From Alcanivorax sp. (lineage in GTDB: Bacteria > Pseudomonadota > Gammaproteobacteria > Pseudomonadales > Alcanivoracaceae), in contig JAIUME010000001.1 in the NCBI GenBank assembly GCA_022565695.1, forward strand, positions 434,001 through 498,000: DNA of 64,000 nucleotides, written 5' to 3'. Position 1 is the first letter of the stretch. Each line of letters opens with the position of its first letter. Under the pieces are notes generated by a model. It ran no database searches. It saw only the letters and a list, made by a program, of their open reading frames with translations, and was not told the DNA's origin. The translations under genes and the position numbers were made by a program. Of the stretch, positions 1 through 13,646 are shown piece by piece.

Positions 1-2
1 AT

Positions 3-3000
3 CGGGGGTTGGATCGAATTAGACTTCTGGTAGCTAGCGATTCACATCAGGAATTCCCACAAGAGTTCAGGGCGGACCCCGTCCACTCGATTACGTACTA
101 TCGCAACAATAACGAGCATGGGCTTGTTTATGTTGAAACTAAAGTAGAAAGCGATGAGCAAGGACTCAAAAACATCTTTACGCTAAGAGATGTGAACTTT
201 CTTGATGGAACGTTTGACGAAGATGGGAAGTTCAATGTCGCAGAGGAGATGGTCAAGCAGGCCATGAGGCACGCCGGTCTTCCTGGCTCTGGTGATAAAG
301 AGCTTTTGCAAGATAGGCTTGTGGAGGTTCTTCGAGAGCTCAATGCCGCCAGCATGACTGTTCCGGTTAGAAAGTTTGCAGGATTTGTGTTGGCCGCTGC
401 GGCCGAAGTGGTTGCCAGTGGCGATATTTACTCGCCAGAGGAAACAAACGCTCTAGTGGGGAGATGCCTTGTACATCTTGATATGTTCCCGGACGAGCTC
501 TGGCGCAATAATCCGGGGCGTGTGGCGCGACGTCTCTCTCTCAACGTTCTTAGGTCTGAGTTAGCTGCTTCGCCCTCCTCGGAGCTTGACGCAGAAAAAA
601 CTGCCCAAGATTGCATCAGGGCGAAATTCATAGACGAGAACGGGATACAGTATGGGTCTGAAGCTCAGCTAATATGGGGTCAGAGATGCGCTGACTATTG
701 TCGGGGCCCTTCCCGTGGCAAGCGCGAGCTTATTCCCTACAGGATATTCGAGCAAGTCTTCAGCAAAGATGTGAAAGGTTTGCCCCTCGGGCAGAGAGTG
801 TTGGAGGAAATTGTCGATAGTGCATCGGGAAGGAAGTCAGAGTTCGACAGTTTGGCCGTGGAAGCCGGCCTAAACAATCGATCTGCAGACGACGCTCGCA
901 GATTTCTAGAGAATGAACCAGCTGATTCCAATGTGCTTCCGTTAAAGGATTTCCTTTCTAAGCAAACGCTCCGCAGAATTGAAAAGCTTGCATCGCCAGC
1001 CGTTGAGAGAGTGCACAATCCCCTGATTAAGCTCGCACAGGTGGTTACCGACTTTCGCAGAGTACATGCGAATTTTGACGAAGGTGATATCAGGATTGAT
1101 GTACGTGCTGGCTCTGGTGTATCTGAGCAGCATTCGCCGAGTCTTGGATTGTTCGCATTCCTGTATGGAAGGTCATTGGGTGAAGTTAGTAGTTCCCTGG
1201 CGGATGGGCTGGGGTCTGTGCGTTTGAAAGTCGACAATCGCTTGGTAAGGCAAGGCTTGGTCCCTCCGCTTAAGGAAGACGTAGGACCTCACGGTGAAAG
1301 TGCTGACAGCGATTCATCCGAGGAAGAGGGAGTGGTTTGGTTGCCGGTTCCTCTCGAGTTCGTTCTGGTTAATGTGAAAGATGGCACTGAACTCGATCGA
1401 GAGGCTGATATTGAATGGCTGCCGGAAGATATTTGTTATCTCGCGCTATTCTGGATTTCTGTCTGCGGAGAGGATAGAGCTGATTTGGATGCTGATATTT
1501 ACACTCCGCCAAATCGGAACGGTGAGGAGTGGGTCAGGCAAGTCTCTCATCGCCTTCTAGCGTTCAGAAGCGAGAATGCGATACCTTTTCGGAAAGAGAT
1601 ACTAAGACACCCGATAGTCAACCAGCTCATCGATGTGCGCTCTAGGTTTAGGGCTGAAGCAGAAGAAAATGGCTTGTCCGCTGGGCTGATGAATAACGTA
1701 TTTGACGAATGGTCTTTACTTCTTACTGAGGCGCGCAAATCCTTTGTACCAGACGGTGATATTCCGGACGGAATGTTCGAATTTCTGAACGCTGATTGTC
1801 TCCAAGGATTTGATGACTCTGGAGTGCTAATGCTTCAGTCGCATCCGTTGAAACTGAGATGGATGGCCGCATACTTGGCGAAGTCATCTCAGCTTGTTTC
1901 TGATGCGATCGAGGGCGCGCTGAAACTGAACGAATTAAATGAGAGCTTTTACTTAAATTGGATACAAGACCTTTCGCCGCATCAGCAGCCTTCGATACAC
2001 ACAACGGCGGACGGGCATATTCTATTCGCCGCTGGAGAGCTTGGTTGGGCAGAGCATTTTCACAAAAATTCCTTGTCTAGTAGTACTGCGTCGGGGGATA
2101 GAATCCACGCAAGTCTCGTCGCCGAAATCGTACGGCAGATTATCGCATACCTCCATGCTCACCCTTACAAAGCAGACGGCCTAACAGTTCTTGTTATAAC
2201 CGGCGGTGCGAGTGGGCTTCCGGCAGATATAGTCCAAGGAGTTCGAAGCGGAGAGTTCAAGAAGCTTGCTATGACTATTGAGCTTGTTGCCCCCAGGGAA
2301 TGCTGGGAGGAGGCTGCCCGCCAGTTCGAACTAGTGGATACAGATAATCGCTTTGCAGGCGAAGGAGCCCTTTTTCCGCCTGTGCAGCTGAATCTTCATG
2401 ATTTCGAGAAAGTCAGGCAGGACGCGGACTCCGCGCTCGCAGGCTTGGTCTGCGATCTAGCAATAGTCCCTCAGTTTCTAGATGACAACATCAGTGTGGA
2501 CCCCAAGACTGAAGATGAAACAAAATCTCGTGGGAGATTTGACCCTCTTCTTGACGACCCTACTTATGTTGCTACTGGGACGGGTTCTTCCGCTTTAGGC
2601 GTTTCTCTAAGGCCAAAAATGCCGGACGCTGCTCTTTCTGGTTGGTCGACGCTTGTAGTCAGGCATGAACGGAGAAACCCAGTCGCTGCTGACCGCCCAG
2701 AAGCAATAGATTTCATAGATATCCGAATTAATTTTCATAGCACGGCGCGTCTTTTCGGAGCGCTTCATAAGATTTCTCATTGGGTCATCACAGTCGAACG
2801 GCATATCACTAGAAAGCAGATCGAAAACCTGGAAACACGCCCAGAGGTGCTGTCGCTGAGAGACGGCGTTGGGCCAGGCGGCCTGTTTACCCTCATTGTG
2901 TCTTCCAACGCTGGCAAGAAGTTTGTTATAGATCGCTTGACTCGGAAGCTAAAGCGGATAGCCGTCTCTATTGGGCGTGAAGATCAAGAAGAGATGCAAG

Positions 3001-4946
3001 CTGAGCAACTTGCCCAGAAGATCTATAATGAAGCCAAGCAGATTTCGCCGAGACTGACCCTCGATGCGCTTGGTATATCACGTGTTACCGAGGAAATTCT
3101 CGGGCTGAGCATCGCGAGGCAGGTCGCCAATCGAAAGATTCCAGCGGCTATCGATGACGGATTCATCGCCTGGATATCCCTCGACGAACATCCGGAATGG
3201 TTTGCCTCAGCGAATTCGATGCGTGCGGATATGATGAGATTGACAGTGAACCTAGGAGAAAATGGTCTCTCGGTAGGCATTCTCATCCTCGAAAGCAAGT
3301 TGCGGCGCACAGGCTATGAGGCGCATGGGGCAGAGCAGGTGCGCAGGACCCTAAAGATGTTCGATGCCGTTTTTCCGCAGAATTCCGATCAGGACCCAAT
3401 GGATGGAAGGCTCTGGAGGGATAAGATTCTTTCGGCGGTGGATACAGTCAGTGAAGATGCAGTTTCTATATCGACAGAGAAAAAAATAGATCAAATGCCT
3501 CGCCGGTCGAGGGTCTCGGATGAGATAAGAGCTAGATTCCGTGAGGGTGACTTTGCCTCTGTAGAGCTCGCTGGCTTGTACTCAATTTGCGAGTACTCAC
3601 ACTCCAGAGAGATGACAGCATCATCTTATGATGAAGATCCCCGGGTTCAGATTATCCAGACTGGGGCCAGTGCGCTGCTTGATCGGCCCTTTGGGTCTGC
3701 TGTTCTTGCGCCGATTGAACGTCAAGGCACCGCTCAATCCGATACTGAGAAAGCAGGAATGCCTTCGCCCCCTCAAGTCAGGGTCGAGAAGAGCGAAGAG
3801 GATCTAGTTGGGCCGAGTCCTCTTGACTATATGCCCGGCACTCAATCAGGACGGGAAAAAACGGTCCCCGTTGACGGTGGCGCTGAGCGAAAGCGCCTCA
3901 GTAGGGCCGAACTGGATCGCCGGTATCAAACAATACTTGATACATTTGGTCAGTACAGCATAAACGTCGGTAAAGCTGCAGCGGATGTCGAATATGCCAT
4001 TGAAGGTCCTGCATCTATCCTTTTCAGGGTTCGCCCCGGAAAGGGCGTGGCGCCGGGGAAGCTGTCTGCGCAGCACGATGCATTGAAACTGGCATTGGAG
4101 CTTGAGGCTTTTCAGGACATGACATTCGGTATCGACAAGGGGCATGTAACTATTGATGTGCCCAAGTTGGACCAAGATAGATACTTTGTTGCTGCAGAAG
4201 ATCTCTGGTCTCGCTGGGTGCGCCCTGAATTTGGGCTGAGGGTGCCCTTGGGAGAGGATCGCTTCGGGAATGTCGTGGATATCGACTTTACTTCCTCGAA
4301 TTCGCCTCACCTCCTGATAGGGGGCACTACGGGAAGCGGGAAATCCGAAGCGCTGAATACAATTCTAGCCGGTATTACTGAGCACTACTCACCAAGGGAG
4401 GTTAGGCTGCATCTAATTGACCCGAAAGGTACGGAGCTAGAGCATCTCGCGGAATCCGAGCATCTCGATGGGGAAATAGGTTGGGAGGAAGACGATGCGA
4501 TTGGAATTCTTTCCCGTGCAGTTGAGGAGATGCAAACCCGTTATGCCAAGTTCAAGAGTTCTAAGGTCAGGTCGCTCGATGACTACAACACCCAGGCTGC
4601 TGAGGGAGAGTGCTTGGCAAGGTGGGTGATCGTTCTTGATGAATATGCTGATCTGACATCAGAGCCTGAGGCGAAGAAGAAAATTGAAGGGCATTTGAAG
4701 CGGCTCGCTCAAAAATCTCGAGCTGCTGGAATACATGTAATTATCGCGACCCAGAAGCCGGATGCGACGGTGATAAGTACGAACTTGAGGTCCAACCTTC
4801 CAGCGCAAATTGCCTTGCGGGTAAAAAGCGCGACAGAAAGCCGGGTCATCATGGATGAGCCTGGAGCTGAGGCTTTAACAGGAAAGGGAGATGCATTCTT
4901 CAAGGAAAGTGGCGTATTGATCAGGGTCCAGTGCGCTAAAATTTAG
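3..4946 (+). CDS. Giant FtsK/HerA-like P-loop ATPase, 5' end cut by window (DptH-like candidate)
   Basis: The frame is open from base 3 with no convincing start (first possible one is TTG at 9), so the gene probably begins upstream. About 1,645 residues are visible. The C-terminal ~230 residues are an FtsK/SpoIIIE motor: Walker A GGTTGSGKS near residues 1438-1446, Walker B VIVLDEYADL with D1544/E1545, then the family block GIHVIIATQKP and a GKGDAFF segment. The first ~1,350 residues match no domain I can name. FtsK of cell division has N-terminal membrane segments; none is seen, so this is not the cell-division translocase. Large soluble proteins with a C-terminal FtsK motor occur in restriction systems such as DptH of the Dnd phosphorothioation system. 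The neighbouring methyltransferase and Vsr fit a defence role. ATPase call firm; DptH identity inferred. Confidence 0.7.
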   Translation, partial: RGLDRIRLLVASDSHQEFPQEFRADPVHSITYYRNNNEHGLVYVETKVESDEQGLKNIFTLRDVNFLDGTFDEDGKFNVAEEMVKQAMRHAGLPGSGDKELLQDRLVEVLRELNAASMTVPVRKFAGFVLAAAAEVVASGDIYSPEETNALVGRCLVHLDMFPDELWRNNPGRVARRLSLNVLRSELAASPSSELDAEKTAQDCIRAKFIDENGIQYGSEAQLIWGQRCADYCRGPSRGKRELIPYRIFEQVFSKDVKGLPLGQRVLEEIVDSASGRKSEFDSLAVEAGLNNRSADDARRFLENEPADSNVLPLKDFLSKQTLRRIEKLASPAVERVHNPLIKLAQVVTDFRRVHANFDEGDIRIDVRAGSGVSEQHSPSLGLFAFLYGRSLGEVSSSLADGLGSVRLKVDNRLVRQGLVPPLKEDVGPHGESADSDSSEEEGVVWLPVPLEFVLVNVKDGTELDREADIEWLPEDICYLALFWISVCGEDRADLDADIYTPPNRNGEEWVRQVSHRLLAFRSENAIPFRKEILRHPIVNQLIDVRSRFRAEAEENGLSAGLMNNVFDEWSLLLTEARKSFVPDGDIPDGMFEFLNADCLQGFDDSGVLMLQSHPLKLRWMAAYLAKSSQLVSDAIEGALKLNELNESFYLNWIQDLSPHQQPSIHTTADGHILFAAGELGWAEHFHKNSLSSSTASGDRIHASLVAEIVRQIIAYLHAHPYKADGLTVLVITGGASGLPADIVQGVRSGEFKKLAMTIELVAPRECWEEAARQFELVDTDNRFAGEGALFPPVQLNLHDFEKVRQDADSALAGLVCDLAIVPQFLDDNISVDPKTEDETKSRGRFDPLLDDPTYVATGTGSSALGVSLRPKMPDAALSGWSTLVVRHERRNPVAADRPEAIDFIDIRINFHSTARLFGALHKISHWVITVERHITRKQIENLETRPEVLSLRDGVGPGGLFTLIVSSNAGKKFVIDRLTRKLKRIAVSIGREDQEEMQAEQLAQKIYNEAKQISPRLTLDALGISRVTEEILGLSIARQVANRKIPAAIDDGFIAWISLDEHPEWFASANSMRADMMRLTVNLGENGLSVGILILESKLRRTGYEAHGAEQVRRTLKMFDAVFPQNSDQDPMDGRLWRDKILSAVDTVSEDAVSISTEKKIDQMPRRSRVSDEIRARFREGDFASVELAGLYSICEYSHSREMTASSYDEDPRVQIIQTGASALLDRPFGSAVLAPIERQGTAQSDTEKAGMPSPPQVRVEKSEEDLVGPSPLDYMPGTQSGREKTVPVDGGAERKRLSRAELDRRYQTILDTFGQYSINVGKAAADVEYAIEGPASILFRVRPGKGVAPGKLSAQHDALKLALELEAFQDMTFGIDKGHVTIDVPKLDQDRYFVAAEDLWSRWVRPEFGLRVPLGEDRFGNVVDIDFTSSNSPHLLIGGTTGSGKSEALNTILAGITEHYSPREVRLHLIDPKGTELEHLAESEHLDGEIGWEEDDAIGILSRAVEEMQTRYAKFKSSKVRSLDDYNTQAAEGECLARWVIVLDEYADLTSEPEAKKKIEGHLKRLAQKSRAAGIHVIIATQKPDATVISTNLRSNLPAQIALRVKSATESRVIMDEPGAEALTGKGDAFFKESGVLIRVQCAKI

Positions 4947-5063
4947 TGGCCCCATACAAGGCAAATGCATTTTATGAGAAGCGTCGATTTCCCTGCATGG
5001 AGCTAGATATGGCAGCGCTTATAGGAGGGGTTAGGAGGTCGCGCCTTCGCCCCATGCTATGCT

Positions 5064-6641
5064 TCAAGACATCAGATTCCAAACAATTTCAGCAAGCTGG
5101 TGGGCCAGGAACGGAGGCACCGCATTTCCGACCTGTACATACTGCTGTGTCCTGTTTCCCTCAAAAAAGTAGTTATCGGGGAAAGTCTGTATTCGTGCGG
5201 CTTCTCGCACCGTCAGGCTGCGGCACTGACGTGGGTCATAGTGAATAAAGTAGTGCCCATCTTTAGAGATATGACTGGTTATAGTCGTGGCCGGCCGCCC
5301 TTTCGCCTGAACCCGAAAGCGATCGGAAAAATGACCACTTTGCCAGTTGGCGTGTTGCGGAGCGAGGCAGGGCGGAAATTCGCTGGCCTTAGGGCTTGCG
5401 TTGTCTTTGTTGTGAGACGCATCCGCCCAGCTACTGCAAAATAAGTAGCGGCCGAGATCTGCTTCAATGTGACTGCGTGTTTCGTGGTTGGTGATCTCAT
5501 CAGGGCGGTCTCTTATAAGCCATTCACGTAGTCCATCGGGCAAACGCCGGCTGACTCCTTCCGAGTTTGAGTAATGCGTACTCCGACTTGGGGCATCTGA
5601 GTATAGTTTTGATACCGCCATATCCATGGCGCCGATTACATCGTGAAGGCGACTCGAGGCTAGTTGAGGTCGTATCCGGTTTGCTTGTCGCTCTACCGCA
5701 GTCTTCCATAGCTTGGGAGAATCCGCCTGTTTTGATAGGCGGGATCTTAACGGAGGAAGCCCGGTAAGCACTTGCTCGATATTTACCGACTTCAAGGGTT
5801 CGAGAAGGCGCGGTTCCCGCTGTAGTTCACTTGAAACGCCGAGTAGGATTACCCGATGTCGCGCCTGCGGCACTCCGAAGTTTTCGGCCCTTATGACGTA
5901 GTCGCTGTCGTTCGCGTAGTTTACCTGAAGCAAGTCATCACTATCAGGAGGGCATACGAGCGAGTAAATACGGTAGGTTTTTCCGCCTCGTCTATTACTA
6001 TTGCTGGTAGCGGCTTTGGGATTGGCAAGATCTTTAAGAATCGTGGGAAAAATTTTCTCTCCACCAACTCTCGATGTGAGGATGCCTTTTACGTTTTCCA
6101 TGACAAACACATCAGGTTGGATGATGGAGAGGACCTCCAGATATTCCTGATATAGGAAGTGCCGGCCGTCATTTTCGGGTTGGTAGCCGGCGACTCCCTT
6201 GTTGCGTGATCGGCCAGCAAGTGAGTAGGCTTGACATGGTGGGCCGCCGATCACCAGCCATGGCTCGCCGGCGTGATGACGCTTGAGTTGTCGTAGGCGC
6301 AAATGAATCCGTTCGTTGTCCTCCCCTAGAGCCTGAGGCGCAGCTAGAGTTTCATCATTTGCATCGCTCCAAGCGTCAGGAACTCTGTCAATCAACTCTC
6401 GTTTTTCGACTTTCCCGGTTACATAAGCCTTATAAAGAGCTTGATCGCCGTTGGAGGTAAGTAATCGGTACAGGGCGCGCAGGGTTAAAGTTTTGTGAGC
6501 GCTGGGTTCCTTTTCTACCGACATACGGATATGAAATGGCTTTTTGCCTGCAGAGGTCGGAAACGCAGAAAAGCCCTCGCCCAGACCGCCCGGGCCTGCA
6601 AAGAGATCTATCACATTGATTTTGCTTGCCATTTTCTTCAT
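5064..6641 (-). CDS. DNA (cytosine-5)-methyltransferase (Dcm family)
   Basis: A 525-residue m5C methyltransferase that transfers methyl from SAM to cytosine C5 in a specific DNA site. Motif I DLFAGPGGLGEGF lies near residues 12-24, motif IV GGPPCQAYS with catalytic Cys136, motif VI ENVK, motif VIII QARHR, and motifs IX/X (TVREAARIQTFP, QVGNAVPP) near the C terminus. The variable region before motif IX is the target-recognition domain; the recognised site cannot be read from sequence. I start at ATG 6641 (MKKMASKIN); a longer frame to 6950 would add 103 unrelated residues and run into vsr. It converges with the FtsK-like gene (117-bp gap) and diverges from vsr. It may be a protective methylase or a restriction partner. 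Confidence 0.93.
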   Translation of the reverse strand: MKKMASKINVIDLFAGPGGLGEGFSAFPTSAGKKPFHIRMSVEKEPSAHKTLTLRALYRLLTSNGDQALYKAYVTGKVEKRELIDRVPDAWSDANDETLAAPQALGEDNERIHLRLRQLKRHHAGEPWLVIGGPPCQAYSLAGRSRNKGVAGYQPENDGRHFLYQEYLEVLSIIQPDVFVMENVKGILTSRVGGEKIFPTILKDLANPKAATSNSNRRGGKTYRIYSLVCPPDSDDLLQVNYANDSDYVIRAENFGVPQARHRVILLGVSSELQREPRLLEPLKSVNIEQVLTGLPPLRSRLSKQADSPKLWKTAVERQANRIRPQLASSRLHDVIGAMDMAVSKLYSDAPSRSTHYSNSEGVSRRLPDGLREWLIRDRPDEITNHETRSHIEADLGRYLFCSSWADASHNKDNASPKASEFPPCLAPQHANWQSGHFSDRFRVQAKGRPATTITSHISKDGHYFIHYDPRQCRSLTVREAARIQTFPDNYFFEGNRTQQYVQVGNAVPPFLAHQLAEIVWNLMS

Positions 6642-6849
6642 GCCTGCAATTGTGAGGCTAGCATAGCAGGACCGGCCAAGAAAACCAGGGGCAACAATGA
6701 AATCATAAATGTGGGGGCATTGATCCTTGGTAATGTCGGTGGTTTGTAGTTGCCATGAGCCAAAAAAGGGGCCTGCGCGGTTTCCGATCGATTCCTGGTC
6801 GTGAAGCCGAAGTGGTAGACTTCCGACTTTGTTAATCCGCTTGTCACCT

Positions 6850-7320
6850 ATGACCGATATCGTTTCAGCCAAAACCCGGTCGCGAATGATGTCCGGCATC
6901 AAAGGCAAGGACACTTTGCCGGAGCGCATGCTGCGCTCTGCCTTGCACAAGAGGGGGCTGCGCTACCGTCTGCACTACAAGGGCTTGCCCGGTAAGCCGG
7001 ATATGGTTTTCCCTCGTTTCCGCGCGATCATCCTGATTCATGGTTGCTTCTGGCATGGCCACAACTGTCACCTGTTCAAATGGCCTGGCACTCGCCAGGA
7101 TTTCTGGCGACAAAAGATCGAATCGAACCGTGCCAGGGACCAAAGAAATCTCGCGCTCTACCATGAGCTTGGCTGGCGCACCCTGACGGTATGGGAATGC
7201 TCTCTCAAGGGTCGAACGAAGCTGGGCATTGACCAGGTTACGGAAATAGCGGCTCATTGGGTCCTGTTTGACGACCGGGATGCGGAGATCACTGGACGTG
7301 ACTTGAGCCTGACCTCATGA
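6850..7320 (+). CDS. vsr: Very short patch repair endonuclease Vsr
   Basis: Nicks DNA at T:G mismatches formed by deamination of 5-methylcytosine, starting very short patch repair. The 156-residue product has the usual family length, and key residues fall at the same numbers as in E. coli Vsr: catalytic Asp51 in GKPDMVF, and zinc ligands Cys66, His71, Cys73 (in HGCFWHGHNC) and Cys117 (in VWEC). I chose ATG 6850 over upstream TTG codons because it gives the canonical N terminus with the MSGIKGKDT motif. It is transcribed away from the methyltransferase across 208 bp, unlike E. coli where dcm and vsr overlap on one strand. It presumably repairs lesions made at the neighbour's methylation sites. 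Confidence 0.95.
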   Translation: MTDIVSAKTRSRMMSGIKGKDTLPERMLRSALHKRGLRYRLHYKGLPGKPDMVFPRFRAIILIHGCFWHGHNCHLFKWPGTRQDFWRQKIESNRARDQRNLALYHELGWRTLTVWECSLKGRTKLGIDQVTEIAAHWVLFDDRDAEITGRDLSLTS

Positions 7321-7368
7321 CTGTCTTTTTGTACAGTACAGATTCCGATGGAGAGATTCAAGAACGCA

Positions 7369-7650
7369 TCAAGACCAAACGAACTTCAGCACCTCATCCT
7401 TACTAAACCGTTGCAAATGTTCCGCCACCACGTCTTTCAGTTTCTCCACACCCTCCTGCTCCGGATGAACCACCTCAATATCCAGCCCCGAGGCAGAGGC
7501 CACCAACGTCGCCCTCTCCGTCTCACTGAACGGCACCACCAGGCGTCCGTCTTCCATCACCACATCAAACTTGTGCCCCCAATGCCGCCCCAGCCGGGTC
7601 ATCAGCCGCTGGGCCTGTTGGGTTTCGAGCCGTGCGTGGGTCGTTGCCAT
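7369..7650 (-). CDS. DUF2218 domain protein
   Basis: A 93-residue protein that fits DUF2218 over its whole length: N-terminal THARLETQQAQRLMTRLGRHWGHK, a central strand-rich part, and a C-terminal LKDVVAEHLQRFS helix. The function of the family is not established; members are often near metal or siderophore genes, but none is visible here. ATG 7650 is preceded by AGGAGA at good spacing. It stands alone on the minus strand after vsr and may mark the return to host-like composition. Confidence 0.75.
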   Translation of the reverse strand: MATTHARLETQQAQRLMTRLGRHWGHKFDVVMEDGRLVVPFSETERATLVASASGLDIEVVHPEQEGVEKLKDVVAEHLQRFSKDEVLKFVWS

Positions 7651-7733
7651 GGGAATCTCCTGAAATGAATAACGCGGAGATAGCTTGGCGTATTCGCAAA
7701 CAATATTGAATCTCGTTTACATTATGGGTTTGA

Positions 7734-8066
7734 TCAGATTATCTGATCTGCCTCTTCTGGCGCGCCGAGTTGCGACACGTCGAATTCCAGCGTGCACGGC
7801 GCTATGGAGTACTTGATCCGCTCCATCTCATGCAGCGCCATATCGCCATCGGCGTGACAACGATCAAAGTATGCCGTTGGCCACCCCAGCAGTTCAGGCT
7901 GCATATGCAGCGTGTTCGGGCGGCATTGCTGCTTTGCGAAGTGGCTTTTCAGTCGCTGGTAGGCGTCATAGGTGGACAAGCGTTTTTTGTTTGTCACTAC
8001 CACAGATACGCGGTTTTTGTTGTTGCTGGCATCACGATATACATAGCTGATTTCCAAATTCAGCAT
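7734..8066 (-). CDS. Hypothetical protein, divergent from an XRE regulator
   Basis: A 110-residue product that I cannot assign to a family. It begins MLNLEISYVYRDASNNKNRV and has mixed strand/helix character, no signal peptide, no membrane segment and two or three Cys. I chose ATG 8066 because a strong GGGAGG lies five bases upstream; in-frame ATGs at 8132 and 8156 give longer versions with weak or no ribosome site. It is transcribed away from the XRE regulator, a layout common for small regulated cargo genes in mobile regions. That it is coding is likely but not certain. Confidence 0.5.
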   Translation of the reverse strand: MLNLEISYVYRDASNNKNRVSVVVTNKKRLSTYDAYQRLKSHFAKQQCRPNTLHMQPELLGWPTAYFDRCHADGDMALHEMERIKYSIAPCTLEFDVSQLGAPEEADQII

Positions 8067-8213
8067 TGGGCCTCCCAAGGCGGCGGGTGTTGGGTGTGCT
8101 TTGGCTGTACTCCGGAAGTATTGATTTGCCATGCCTTGAATGTCAAGATAGTCCATACGACGGAAGTAAGGTAATTCCGTAGCTTGTGGGGGCTGACTAA
8201 CATCGAGGCCCCT

Positions 8214-8549
8214 ATGCCAGGCTTTCCTGAAAGACTGAAATCCGCCCGCCTGCGTTTGGGAATGACCCAGGAGCAGCTGGGCTATGAGTTAAACGTCACC
8301 AAAGCTTCCGTATCCGCATGGGAAAACGCTCGCGAGGCGCCAGGCTTCAGACTGTTGCCAAAGTTAAAACAAGTGCTGGGCGTTTCGCTGGATGAATTGC
8401 TCTGTGGATCTGCTGGAGAGAATCAGAGTGTTGCCAATAACCAGCTGCACGAGCTGACCACGCGCAATGAGGATGAAGCCGCTTTGCTGAAGGCCTTCCG
8501 GCGCATGCCACTCAAGCGACGTAAAGCCTTGCTGGAGGTGATTGAGTAA
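8214..8549 (+). CDS. XRE-family HTH transcriptional regulator
   Basis: A 111-residue DNA-binding protein. Residues ~5-60 form a Cro/C1-type helix-turn-helix (ARLRLGMTQEQLGYELNVTKASVSAWENAR) followed by the usual LPKLKQVLGVSLDELL helix pair. The C-terminal ~45 residues are helical (LLKAFRRMPLKRRKALLEVIE), typical of small phage-like repressors. ATG 8214 has GAGG seven bases upstream. It faces away from the 110-residue unknown gene across ~150 bp and probably controls that gene and itself; this is inferred from layout. Confidence 0.88.
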   Translation: MPGFPERLKSARLRLGMTQEQLGYELNVTKASVSAWENAREAPGFRLLPKLKQVLGVSLDELLCGSAGENQSVANNQLHELTTRNEDEAALLKAFRRMPLKRRKALLEVIE

Positions 8550-12690: not shown

Positions 12691-12722
12691 GCAGCATGAC
12701 AGCTTGCGGCCTGTCATGCTGC
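12691..12722. repeat. Perfect 12-bp hairpin
   Basis: GCAGCATGACAG (12691-12702) and CTGTCATGCTGC (12711-12722) are exact reverse complements around an 8-base loop. It starts 8 bases after the stop of the small helical-protein gene. No U-run follows, so it is either a weak terminator or an operator for the downstream DUF3800 gene. Confidence 0.7.
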
Positions 12723-12773
12723 GTAGCCAGATTGCAGCAACGTCTATTGCGCGTGCTAACAAGGAGGTCATGG

Positions 12774-13646
12774 ATGAGCATGCCGGATAATCAGCAGCTC
12801 CCGCTGTTTGAGGATGAAGGAAGGGAGTATCCGCCAAGTAGCGGCGAAAGAGGTATCGTTGGTCCGGAGAGTTCGTTTGGCAAATACATAGTCTATGTGG
12901 ATGAAAGTGGCGACCATAGCCTGAAAACTATCGACGCAAACTATCCGGTGTTTGTTCTCGCCTTTTGTATCTTCCATAAACGGCATTACAGCGAGAAAGT
13001 TGTCCCAGCACTTGAGAAGTTCAAGTTCAACCATTTCGGACATGATCAGATTGTATTGCATGAGCACGAGATACGAAAAGAGCGTGGAGCATTCAATATA
13101 TTTCGCAGCCGAGATGAACAACTTAATTTCATGGCAGAGCTGACAACTATCATTGAACGAAGCAACTTCATCCTGGTTAGCTGCGTGATAGACAAGCGCG
13201 ATCTTTCAGAAAAAACAGGTACAGCGGAGAATCCCTATCATATTGCTTTGGGATTCTGTCTGGAAACGCTATATGAGTTTCTTGAGGAGAAGGGTCAGCA
13301 TCAGAAGCGTACACATGTTGTCGTGGAGCGCAGGGGCAATAAGGAAGACAATGAGCTTGAGCTGGAGTTTCGTAGATTCTGCGATGGAAGCAACAAGTTC
13401 TCCGCGATCCTGCCCTTTGAGGTGCTGTTTTCTGACAAGAGGGCGATGTCATCAGGCCTGCAGCTGGCAGACCTGGTTGCTCGCCCTATAGGGCTGCATG
13501 TGCTCAGGCCGGACCAGGGCAATCGTGCTTTCGATGTGTTGAGGCGAAAATTCTATTGCGATGGCGGGCGAGAGAATGTCGGGCAGGGCTATGAGAATAT
13601 GGGCCTGAAGATTTACCCTCGGCCAGAAAGCGAAAAGCCCCGATGA
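12774..13646 (+). CDS. DUF3800 domain protein
   Basis: A 290-residue protein with the DUF3800 hallmarks: YVDESGDHS near residues 42-50, conserved acidic residues in the middle (VVERRGNKEDNELE), and the C-terminal LQLADLVA helix. DUF3800 is predicted to have an RNase H-like fold with acidic active-site residues; its role is unsettled, though members occur in mobile and defence regions. I start at ATG 12774, six bases after a perfect AAGGAGG. Base composition is more AT-rich than in the neighbours, a hint of transfer. It stands alone after the perfect hairpin and has no obvious partner. Confidence 0.82.
   Translation: MSMPDNQQLPLFEDEGREYPPSSGERGIVGPESSFGKYIVYVDESGDHSLKTIDANYPVFVLAFCIFHKRHYSEKVVPALEKFKFNHFGHDQIVLHEHEIRKERGAFNIFRSRDEQLNFMAELTTIIERSNFILVSCVIDKRDLSEKTGTAENPYHIALGFCLETLYEFLEEKGQHQKRTHVVVERRGNKEDNELELEFRRFCDGSNKFSAILPFEVLFSDKRAMSSGLQLADLVARPIGLHVLRPDQGNRAFDVLRRKFYCDGGRENVGQGYENMGLKIYPRPESEKPR

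What the first reader, a model, noticed from the sequence alone, without database searches (positions are those of the whole stretch)
3..7320. Giant FtsK-type ATPase beside a divergent methyltransferase-Vsr pair: possible defence system cut by the window edge
A ~1,645-residue protein with only a C-terminal FtsK motor lies tail-to-tail with an m5C methyltransferase, which is divergent from Vsr. The ~1,350-residue N-terminal part has no domain I recognise. DptH of Dnd restriction has a similar plan, but Dnd marks DNA by phosphorothioation, not m5C, so a methyl-linked variant would be new.
Basis: partly seen in the sequence, partly recalled or inferred. Interest (0 to 1): 0.75.

Follow-up and report, generated by a model that had tools for sequence, protein, structure and literature searches.

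The report
Cytosine-methylation-linked FtsK-motor restriction locus
The giant motor protein is the third gene of a three-gene DNA-restriction machine of the kind that usually guards sulphur-marked DNA, but here it travels with a cytosine methyltransferase and a repair nuclease instead, a pairing kept in distant bacteria, so the same machine seems able to work with a different self-mark.

Summary
Upstream lie two more genes: the giant protein is gene 3 of an F-G-H operon matching PADLOC SspF/SspG/SspH, the restriction module of a phosphorothioate (PT) system. No SspD or DndC match was found in the host genome. Instead an m5C methyltransferase (MTase) and a Vsr lie against the operon. A scan with F alone gave 16 further loci. 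With the window, an m5C MTase lies beside FGH in 14 of 17; the other three stop at contig ends. Vsr is intact in 12 of 17. None of 13 distant FGH loci shows either; most of those are PT-linked or MADS-like. F, G and H coevolve (r 0.99), but MTase and Vsr are exchanged: FGH modules about 90% identical carry MTases 45% identical. Best reading: a 5mC+Vsr variant of the Ssp/Dnd/MADS FGH family. Defence, methylated site and how self is read are untested. FGH with a methyltransferase is not itself new (MADS); the 5mC+Vsr form was not found in the papers searched.

The parts
1..4946 (+). H (SspH/DptH-like), 3' 1,647 codons of a 1,701-aa gene whose ATG lies 160 bases before the window (G000:C1:433841). 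F (C1:430667-432520) and G (C1:432523-433827) lie just upstream, outside the window.
3228..3299 (+). Candidate PD-(D/E)xK nuclease motif of H (D1130 ... E1151-x-K1153 of the full protein), identical in 14 of 14 H proteins aligned; the name of the motif is recalled, not from a call
4230..4760 (+). FtsK/SpoIIIE motor of H; Walker A GTTGSGKS and Walker B VLDEYAD invariant in 14 of 14
5064..6632 (-). m5C DNA methyltransferase, 522 aa; GGPPCQ and ENVKG motifs invariant in 12 of 12 aligned relatives; best PADLOC model DrmMII
6850..7320 (+). Vsr mismatch endonuclease, divergent from the MTase
1..8500 (.). Window part of a low-GC island (45-54% GC per kb against 59-68% in most neighbouring kb) that begins about 5.2 kb before the window, after the gene I call prlC; three small ORFs at 7369-8549 lie in its right end

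Best explanation
The locus is a five-gene, island-borne restriction system: an SspFGH/DndFGH-type effector (F = P-loop NTPase, G = probable DNA-binding subunit, H = nuclease plus FtsK motor) that uses 5-methylcytosine as the host mark in place of phosphorothioate. The 522-aa MTase methylates its own site in the chromosome. The F-G-H complex loads on DNA, the FtsK motor moves along it, and the H nuclease nicks or cuts DNA that lacks the mark. Vsr repairs the T:G mismatches that arise when 5mC deaminates. The MTase-Vsr pair is a replaceable cassette: nearly identical FGH modules carry MTases with unlike target-recognition regions. Self-recognition is therefore more likely a general response to 5mC, or contact with the MTase, than a fixed target sequence read by FGH. 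Shown here: gene content, linkage, conserved motifs, exchange of the cassette, no detectable SspD/DndC in the host genome. Inferred: defence, direction of discrimination, motor and nuclease action, different MTase sites, role of Vsr.
For: F, G and H match PADLOC SspF 1.9e-45, SspG 4.6e-15, SspH 8.3e-86. Scan with F alone: 16 loci. With the window, m5C MTase beside FGH in 14 of 17 (12 of one >500-aa subfamily, 2 of other kinds); the other 3 stop at contig ends. In the 12 loci where both sides of a complete FGH are visible, it is 12 of 12. Intact Vsr in 12 of 17, plus a broken remnant in one. Cassette within 162 bases of FGH, or overlapping it, in 12 of 14. None of 13 more distant FGH loci shows an m5C MTase or Vsr in the stretches fetched; Fisher p 5e-6 for 14/17 vs 0/13, 5e-8 for 14/14 vs 0/13. 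F/G/H distances correlate at 0.99, H with MTase at 0.46. L021 and L023: F 89%, G 94%, H 90%, MTase 45%, Vsr 46%, cassette on opposite sides. Nuclease motif, both H motor motifs and the F Walker A invariant.
Against: No experiment; no methylome. The MTase subfamily is not dedicated to FGH: none of the 11 non-window cases in the order sample has FGH in the stretch fetched. The 14 loci are related, so not 14 independent events, and MTase distance still follows FGH weakly (Mantel p 0.003). L020 and L022 have no Vsr match anywhere in the genome, so Vsr is not essential. Genomes of L026 and L027 have no MTase of the subfamily and no full Vsr. In L018 the MTase has its own AspBHI-like REase. A strong SspD is present in the genome of L027 and a DndC-like hit in that of L019. 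The absence of PT genes rests on SspD and DndC alone; SspB, SspC, DndD and DndE were not sought, and the DndC search had no positive control among my own genomes. The G model gave no PDB fold match.
Confidence: 0.68

Rival explanations
1. Neighbours, not partners: FGH is a standalone counter-invader system (the Rakesh, Aravind and Krishnan 2024 view), and the MTase-Vsr pair is a separate 5mC repair or epigenetic cassette that collects in the same defence islands.
For: MTase distances follow FGH only weakly; the same MTase subfamily occurs without FGH in 11 of 12 order-sample genomes, with a Vsr match in 6 of those 11 (one of them broken), and scanned neighbours include GHKL, Z1 and AIPR proteins; PMC10853773 argues for standalone DndFGH.
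Against: 14 of 17 loci (12 of 12 with both sides visible) against 0 of 13 distant FGH loci; gaps of 162 bases or less in 12 of 14; after exchange the newcomer is again mostly an MTase of the same subfamily with a Vsr; about 0.0002 such MTases expected per neighbourhood, assuming 4-Mb genomes.
Confidence: 0.22
2. A PT-dependent SspFGH whose modification genes lie elsewhere in the genome; the MTase is incidental.
For: The nearest named family, SspFGH, is PT-coupled; an SspD gene exists in the genome of L027 and a DndC-like one in that of L019.
Against: No SspD match (E 0.001) or DndC match (E 1e-10) in the window's genome; no SspD match in 11 of 18 genomes searched, namely G000 and those of L013-L018, L021, L023, L026 and L028. 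The SspD positive control G197 was found.
Confidence: 0.04
3. Modification-dependent action: FGH is switched on, not held off, by 5mC, as SspE is by PT, for example using the host mark as a licence to act on replicating phage DNA.
For: SspE is PT-stimulated (abstract start of PMC8092258); the present data fix only the link to 5mC, not its sign.
Against: The closest relative tested, SspFGH, damages non-PT DNA and is toxic without PT (passages of PMC8092258).
Confidence: 0.06

Closest known systems
SspABCD-SspFGH (Vibrio anguillarum FF-93; Wang et al. 2021, PMC8092258, passages read)
   Same: Three-gene F-G-H order, Walker A in F, FtsK-like C-terminus in H, PADLOC SspF/G/H matches.
   Different: Mark is PT made by SspBCD; no m5C MTase or Vsr match beside the 6 PT-linked loci of my H tree or beside two more. 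Identity to G197's PT-linked H is 22-34% over parts.
DndFGH/DptFGH (PMC10853773: abstract, listed passages and sections 12, 19-22 and 25 read)
   Same: H plan: nuclease, methyltransferase-like Rossmann domain, FtsK motor. Folds nearest the N-terminal H model are class I SAM methyltransferases, including M.BseCI (E 0.003 to 0.04, weak). FtsK-alpha in H is weak (0.001, under Pfam's cut-off).
   Different: No PADLOC DndF match better than 2e-4, no DndG or DndH match at the cut-offs used. The paper treats DndFGH as lacking an inbuilt modification module and speaks of cytosine methylases for DndDE/CxC systems; 'vsr' does not occur in its main text.
MADS (mad1-8; Maestri et al. 2024, not held; known here from PADLOC labels, a review passage and recall)
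   Same: Plasmid MADS-like loci carry F homologues and PADLOC mad6 and mad8 (L060) or mad7 and mad5 (L068) beside an N-6 DNA methylase: already an FGH-like effector with a base methyltransferase.
   Different: L060 and L068 have a kinase-annotated F protein; L068 also a specificity subunit and a PP2C phosphatase. The window has an m5C MTase and Vsr instead, and its F has no mad6 match.
m5C MTase + Vsr with GHKL/MORC, Z1 and AIPR genes (Iyer et al. 2008 PMC2292703; Bellieny-Rabelo et al. 2021 PMC8011034, passages read)
   Same: Same kind of MTase-Vsr cassette; in the order sample, GHKL, Z1 or AIPR proteins were found by Pfam beside the window's MTase subfamily in 4 of the 6 loci scanned (L046, L047, L048, L055).
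   Different: Effector is FGH; 'FtsK' and 'HerA' do not occur in PMC2292703 and 'FtsK' not in PMC8011034.

Membership tests
SspFGH/DndFGH-type restriction module | Adjacent F-G-H genes in that order | tested here: met
   same order in all 14 loci long enough to show all three
SspFGH/DndFGH-type restriction module | F with P-loop Walker A (a cysteine-rich insert occurs in some DndF) | tested here: met
   GDAGHGKT invariant in 15 of 15; CxxC...C in 15 of 15
SspFGH/DndFGH-type restriction module | H with C-terminal FtsK/HerA motor | tested here: met
   PF01580 1.1e-32; Walker motifs invariant in 14 of 14
SspFGH/DndFGH-type restriction module | H with intact nuclease motif | tested here: met
   D...ExK invariant in 14 of 14; read as a nuclease motif by recall; no Pfam nuclease match in H; activity not tested
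SspFGH/DndFGH-type restriction module | H with catalytically dead adenine-MTase-like domain | tested here: inconclusive
   methyltransferase folds are the best matches but E at best 0.003, pLDDT 66.9; no [NDS]PP[FYWH] in residues 1-1300 of 14 of 14
SspFGH/DndFGH-type restriction module | G with triple winged helix | tested here: inconclusive
   model of the L013 G protein pLDDT 81.7, no PDB match with E below 1
PT-based Ssp or Dnd system as a whole | SspD/DndC sulphur-insertion genes in the genome | tested here: not met
   no match in G000: SspD at E 0.001, DndC at E 1e-10
MADS | Kinase-fused F (mad6) and HsdM/HsdS-type genes | tested here: not met
   F is 617 aa with no mad6 match; the adjacent MTase is m5C type
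DISARM class 2 | DrmA/DrmB/DrmC beside a DrmMII-type m5C MTase | tested here: not met
   MTase best model is DrmMII 5.8e-92, but F, G and H match no Drm model
Type II R-M with Vsr | A cognate Type II restriction enzyme beside the MTase | tested here: inconclusive
   none recognised; the ORFs at 7369-7650 and 7734-8156 were not scanned against any library
Any defence system | Protects against phage or plasmid | not testable with these tools
   needs phage challenge

The most novel reading that the evidence does not exclude
FGH is a mark-independent restriction engine. Related F-G-H machines are coupled to three chemistries (phosphorothioate, adenine methylation and, here, 5-methylcytosine). In the 5mC branch one nearly unchanged FGH works with MTases of different sequence specificity, so it reads 'is this DNA marked' through generic 5mC sensing or through the MTase itself, unlike a Type II enzyme tied to one site.
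Probability: 0.35. Interest if true: 0.82.

Novelty: new variant of a known kind. Interest (0 to 1): 0.62.

Why it matters
How DndFGH/SspFGH tells self from non-self is unsettled: only 10-15% of consensus sites are PT-marked (passages of PMC10853773 and PMC8092258). A branch that uses 5mC, a mark that is easy to make, map and swap, makes the question testable: keep FGH fixed, change the MTase, and see whether protection follows. It would also show that modification and effector modules of prokaryotic restriction are exchangeable parts, one MTase-Vsr cassette serving FGH as well as GHKL-, Z1- or AIPR-containing neighbourhoods.

Tried and rejected
PT genes elsewhere in the genome: SspD and DndC searched and not found in G000. 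Phage or viral carriage: tblastn of F in phages gave nothing at E 0.001; in the viral-contig scan 88 stretches matched a pattern but none encoded F. Sequence search for solved structures of F, G and the N-terminal part of H gave nothing useful. Foldseek with the G model gave no match. A hypervariable target-recognition segment in H that tracks the MTase: looked for by sliding identity, not seen; only the linker at about H 1261-1345 is strongly variable, with milder dips at about 481-600 of H and 121-240 of F. Prediction of the methylated site was not attempted, for lack of a reference set. The MTase as a 628-aa protein was rejected: the first 106 residues are antisense to Vsr or lie before the conserved start.

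Full report
What is there. The window is G000:C1:434001-498000. Reading upstream shows that the giant protein is the last gene of a tight operon: F (C1:430667-432520, 617 aa), G (432523-433827, 434 aa) and H (433841-438946, 1,701 aa), the end of H lying at window 4946. Convergent to H, after 117 bases, is an m5C methyltransferase (window 5064-6632, minus strand, 522 aa from its conserved ATG), and divergent from that is Vsr (about 6850-7320). Against PADLOC, F is SspF (1.9e-45), G is SspG (4.6e-15), H is SspH (8.3e-86; also mad8 2.4e-26 over the motor), Vsr is Vsr (1.9e-42), and the MTase is best matched by DrmMII (5.8e-92).

Setting. The locus is a low-GC island. 1-kb windows are 45-54% GC from about 5.2 kb before the window to about 8.5 kb into it, against 59-68% in the neighbouring windows shown, apart from one at 12.5 kb (50.6%). 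It begins directly after a gene I take from its sequence to be prlC (name recalled). Seven relatives have that gene; in the four whose stretches I took, the nucleotide match stops soon after it, so the place looks like a variable insertion spot.

Is the association real? In 390 genomes of the same order the N-terminal part of H matched 3 at E 1e-8: the window, G121 and G197. G121 is the genome of L018 (same 119,092-base contig, 100% identical proteins) and is counted once. An alignment of F from the window and G121 was then used alone to scan the collection of 84,980 species genomes; 115 stretches matched a pattern and 16 loci encoded F. Nothing about the MTase or Vsr entered that search; being pattern-based, it will miss relatives. 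With the window that makes 17 loci. An m5C MTase lies beside FGH in 14: 12 of one subfamily of 506-548 aa (window, L013-L017, L021-L025, L028), and 2 of other kinds (L018, together with an AspBHI-like restriction enzyme; L020). The other three (L019, L026, L027) stop at a contig end next to or within the operon. L016 and L023 are also cut but show the cassette on the visible side, so 14 of 14 would be a biased count; in the 12 loci with a complete FGH and both sides visible it is 12 of 12. L019 keeps only a broken Vsr remnant at its contig end, and its genome has an MTase-Vsr pair on a separate 10-kb contig. Intact Vsr lies beside FGH in 12 of 17; the genomes of L020, L022 and L026 gave no Vsr match, that of L027 only a partial one. 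The MTase subfamily is in 13 of the 17 host genomes.

Distances and order. The cassette is within 162 bases of FGH or overlaps it in 12 of 14 loci, 2.4 kb away in L016 and 1.0 kb away in L020. It lies downstream and convergent in the window, L013, L014, L015, L017, L018, L022 and L023 (Vsr pointing back in L018 and L023), and upstream in L016, L020, L021, L024, L025 and L028. In L021 and L028 all five genes run the same way.

Control. Thirteen more distant FGH loci were examined: G197/L010, the ten plasmid matches, and two from class-level sampling. None shows an m5C MTase or Vsr match in the stretches fetched (for eleven, with the full MTase and Vsr query set; for two, with the window and G121 queries). 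Fisher p is 5e-6 for 14/17 against 0/13 and 5e-8 for 14/14 against 0/13. Eight of the thirteen have SspC/SspD-type genes beside them (L010, L062, L063, L064, L067, L069, G996, G879); for L069 this rests on recognising unannotated frames by eye, and for L062 on one annotated PAPS-reductase neighbour. Three look like MADS: L060 and L068 by annotation and PADLOC, L065 by its frames alone. L066 has two other DNA methyltransferase genes, L061 none annotated. In a quick tree of the N-terminal part of H (25 rows; G996 and G879 not included) the 5mC-, PT- and m6A-linked proteins each form one side of a branch (support 100, 100, 99). The 5mC clade was sampled by closeness to the window, so its unity is partly by construction; long branches join the groups.

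Random samples. A profile of G matched 2 of 398 genomes of the phylum (the window and G679, which from its coordinates appears to be the genome of L015) and 3 of 369 of the class (the window and the two PT-linked loci above) at E 1e-5. The clade is rare.

PT genes. SspD was sought in 18 genomes: strong only in the control G197 and in G404 (host of L027), weak in five others, none in the remaining 11, G000 among them; the weak matches mean little, since the same model rings in 7 of 14 well-known control genomes. DndC (E 1e-10) matched only in G396 (host of L019). Other PT genes were not sought.

Exchange of the mark. Pairwise distances of F, G and H correlate at 0.99 (14 loci). H with MTase correlates at 0.46 (11 loci, permutation p 0.003), MTase with Vsr at 0.55, H with Vsr at 0.15 (p 0.15). 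So the cassette follows FGH only weakly. The clearest case is L021 (Hydrogenophaga) against L023 (Rubrivivax): F 89%, G 94%, H 90%, but MTase 45% and Vsr 46%, with the cassette upstream in one and downstream in the other. In the sliding comparison the central MTase region (windows starting at 271-331, taken here as the target-recognition region) is 15-28% identical, while H shows no comparable divergent segment apart from the linker before the FtsK part (52-73%); the first half of F is somewhat more variable (75-88%) than the second. I read this as replacement of the MTase-Vsr cassette while FGH stayed. That the two MTases have different sites is inferred.

The cassette elsewhere. In the 390-genome sample the MTase subfamily occurs in 12 genomes (E 1e-40), 11 besides the window. 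None of the 11 stretches fetched has an F, G or H match; a Vsr match is beside 6 of the 11, one of them split over two frames. Of ten neighbouring proteins given to Pfam (nine of them from six of these loci), GHKL ATPases, Z1 or AIPR proteins turned up in four loci (L046, L047, L048, L055) and nothing in two (L050, L051). Such settings are reported in PMC2292703 and PMC8011034 (passages). So the cassette is a shared modification module.

Integrity of parts. In 14 H proteins the D...ExK motif and both Walker motifs are invariant; in 15 F proteins the Walker A motif is; in 12 MTases the motifs GGPPCQ and ENVKG are; in 12 Vsr proteins 24 positions are invariant, including D58 and H76 of the window protein. 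An AlphaFold2 model of H residues 55-1234 has mean pLDDT 66.9; its nearest folds are class I SAM methyltransferases, M.BseCI among them (all E above 0.001). No [NDS]PP[FYWH] motif occurs in residues 1-1300 of any of 14 H proteins. This agrees with the inactive methyltransferase domain described for DndH (PMC10853773 section 21) but does not prove it. A model of the L013 G protein (pLDDT 81.7) matched nothing.

How it probably works. By analogy with SspFGH, which damages DNA lacking its mark and is toxic in cells without the mark (PMC8092258 passages), the MTase protects the chromosome and FGH attacks unmarked DNA, the FtsK motor supplying movement and the H nuclease the nick or cut. Vsr would limit C-to-T mutation at methylated sites; it seems dispensable, since L020 and L022 lack it. 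Because FGH appears to tolerate MTases with unlike recognition regions, I favour generic reading of 5mC or reading through the MTase. The sign of the response (held off or switched on by 5mC) is not settled by sequence.

What is new. Searches of the open-licence PMC library (listings of at most 20 papers each) showed no paper that, by title, abstract start or the passages I opened, describes FGH with an m5C MTase and Vsr. The fullest comparative study (PMC10853773) has no occurrence of 'vsr' in its main text and speaks of cytosine methylases for DndDE/CxC systems. Its supplements, preprints and most subscription papers were not available, the MADS paper among them. An FGH-like module joined to a methyltransferase is already known in MADS, so this is a new variant, not a new kind.

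Noticed in passing
L018:18220-20942 (also L008): In Marinobacter pelagius the FGH operon adjoins a different m5C MTase with an AspBHI-like/Mrr restriction enzyme and a Vsr: a complete R-M-like set beside FGH.
   Followed up: partly
L046-L056: The window's MTase subfamily occurs without FGH beside other genes; GHKL, Z1 or AIPR proteins were found by Pfam in L046, L047, L048 and L055, so it looks like a general modification cassette.
   Followed up: partly
L060, L065, L068: Plasmid MADS-like loci: proteins matching mad6, mad7 and mad8 look like kinase-fused F, G and H, which would unite MADS with Dnd/Ssp restriction modules.
   Followed up: partly
L061 and L066 (Rhizobium plasmids): FGH with NERD-annotated F proteins; one beside two other DNA methyltransferase genes, one with no annotated modification gene.
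   Followed up: no
L087:8940-11144: The genome of L023 has a second MTase-Vsr pair of the same kind beside other, unidentified genes.
   Followed up: no
L019:94-269: Broken Vsr remnant just upstream of F, while an MTase-Vsr pair lies on another small contig of that genome (L086).
   Followed up: partly
L026:9977-11125: F frame of 382 aa lacking the middle of the protein, near a contig end; possibly a decayed system or an assembly fault.
   Followed up: no
just after the gene taken to be prlC (L002:12031-14112), about 5.2 kb before the window: Variable insertion spot: the four relatives examined carry different DNA after this gene.
   Followed up: partly
window 12696-13646: DUF3800 protein in a low-GC kilobase (50.6%), possibly a second small insertion.
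   Followed up: no
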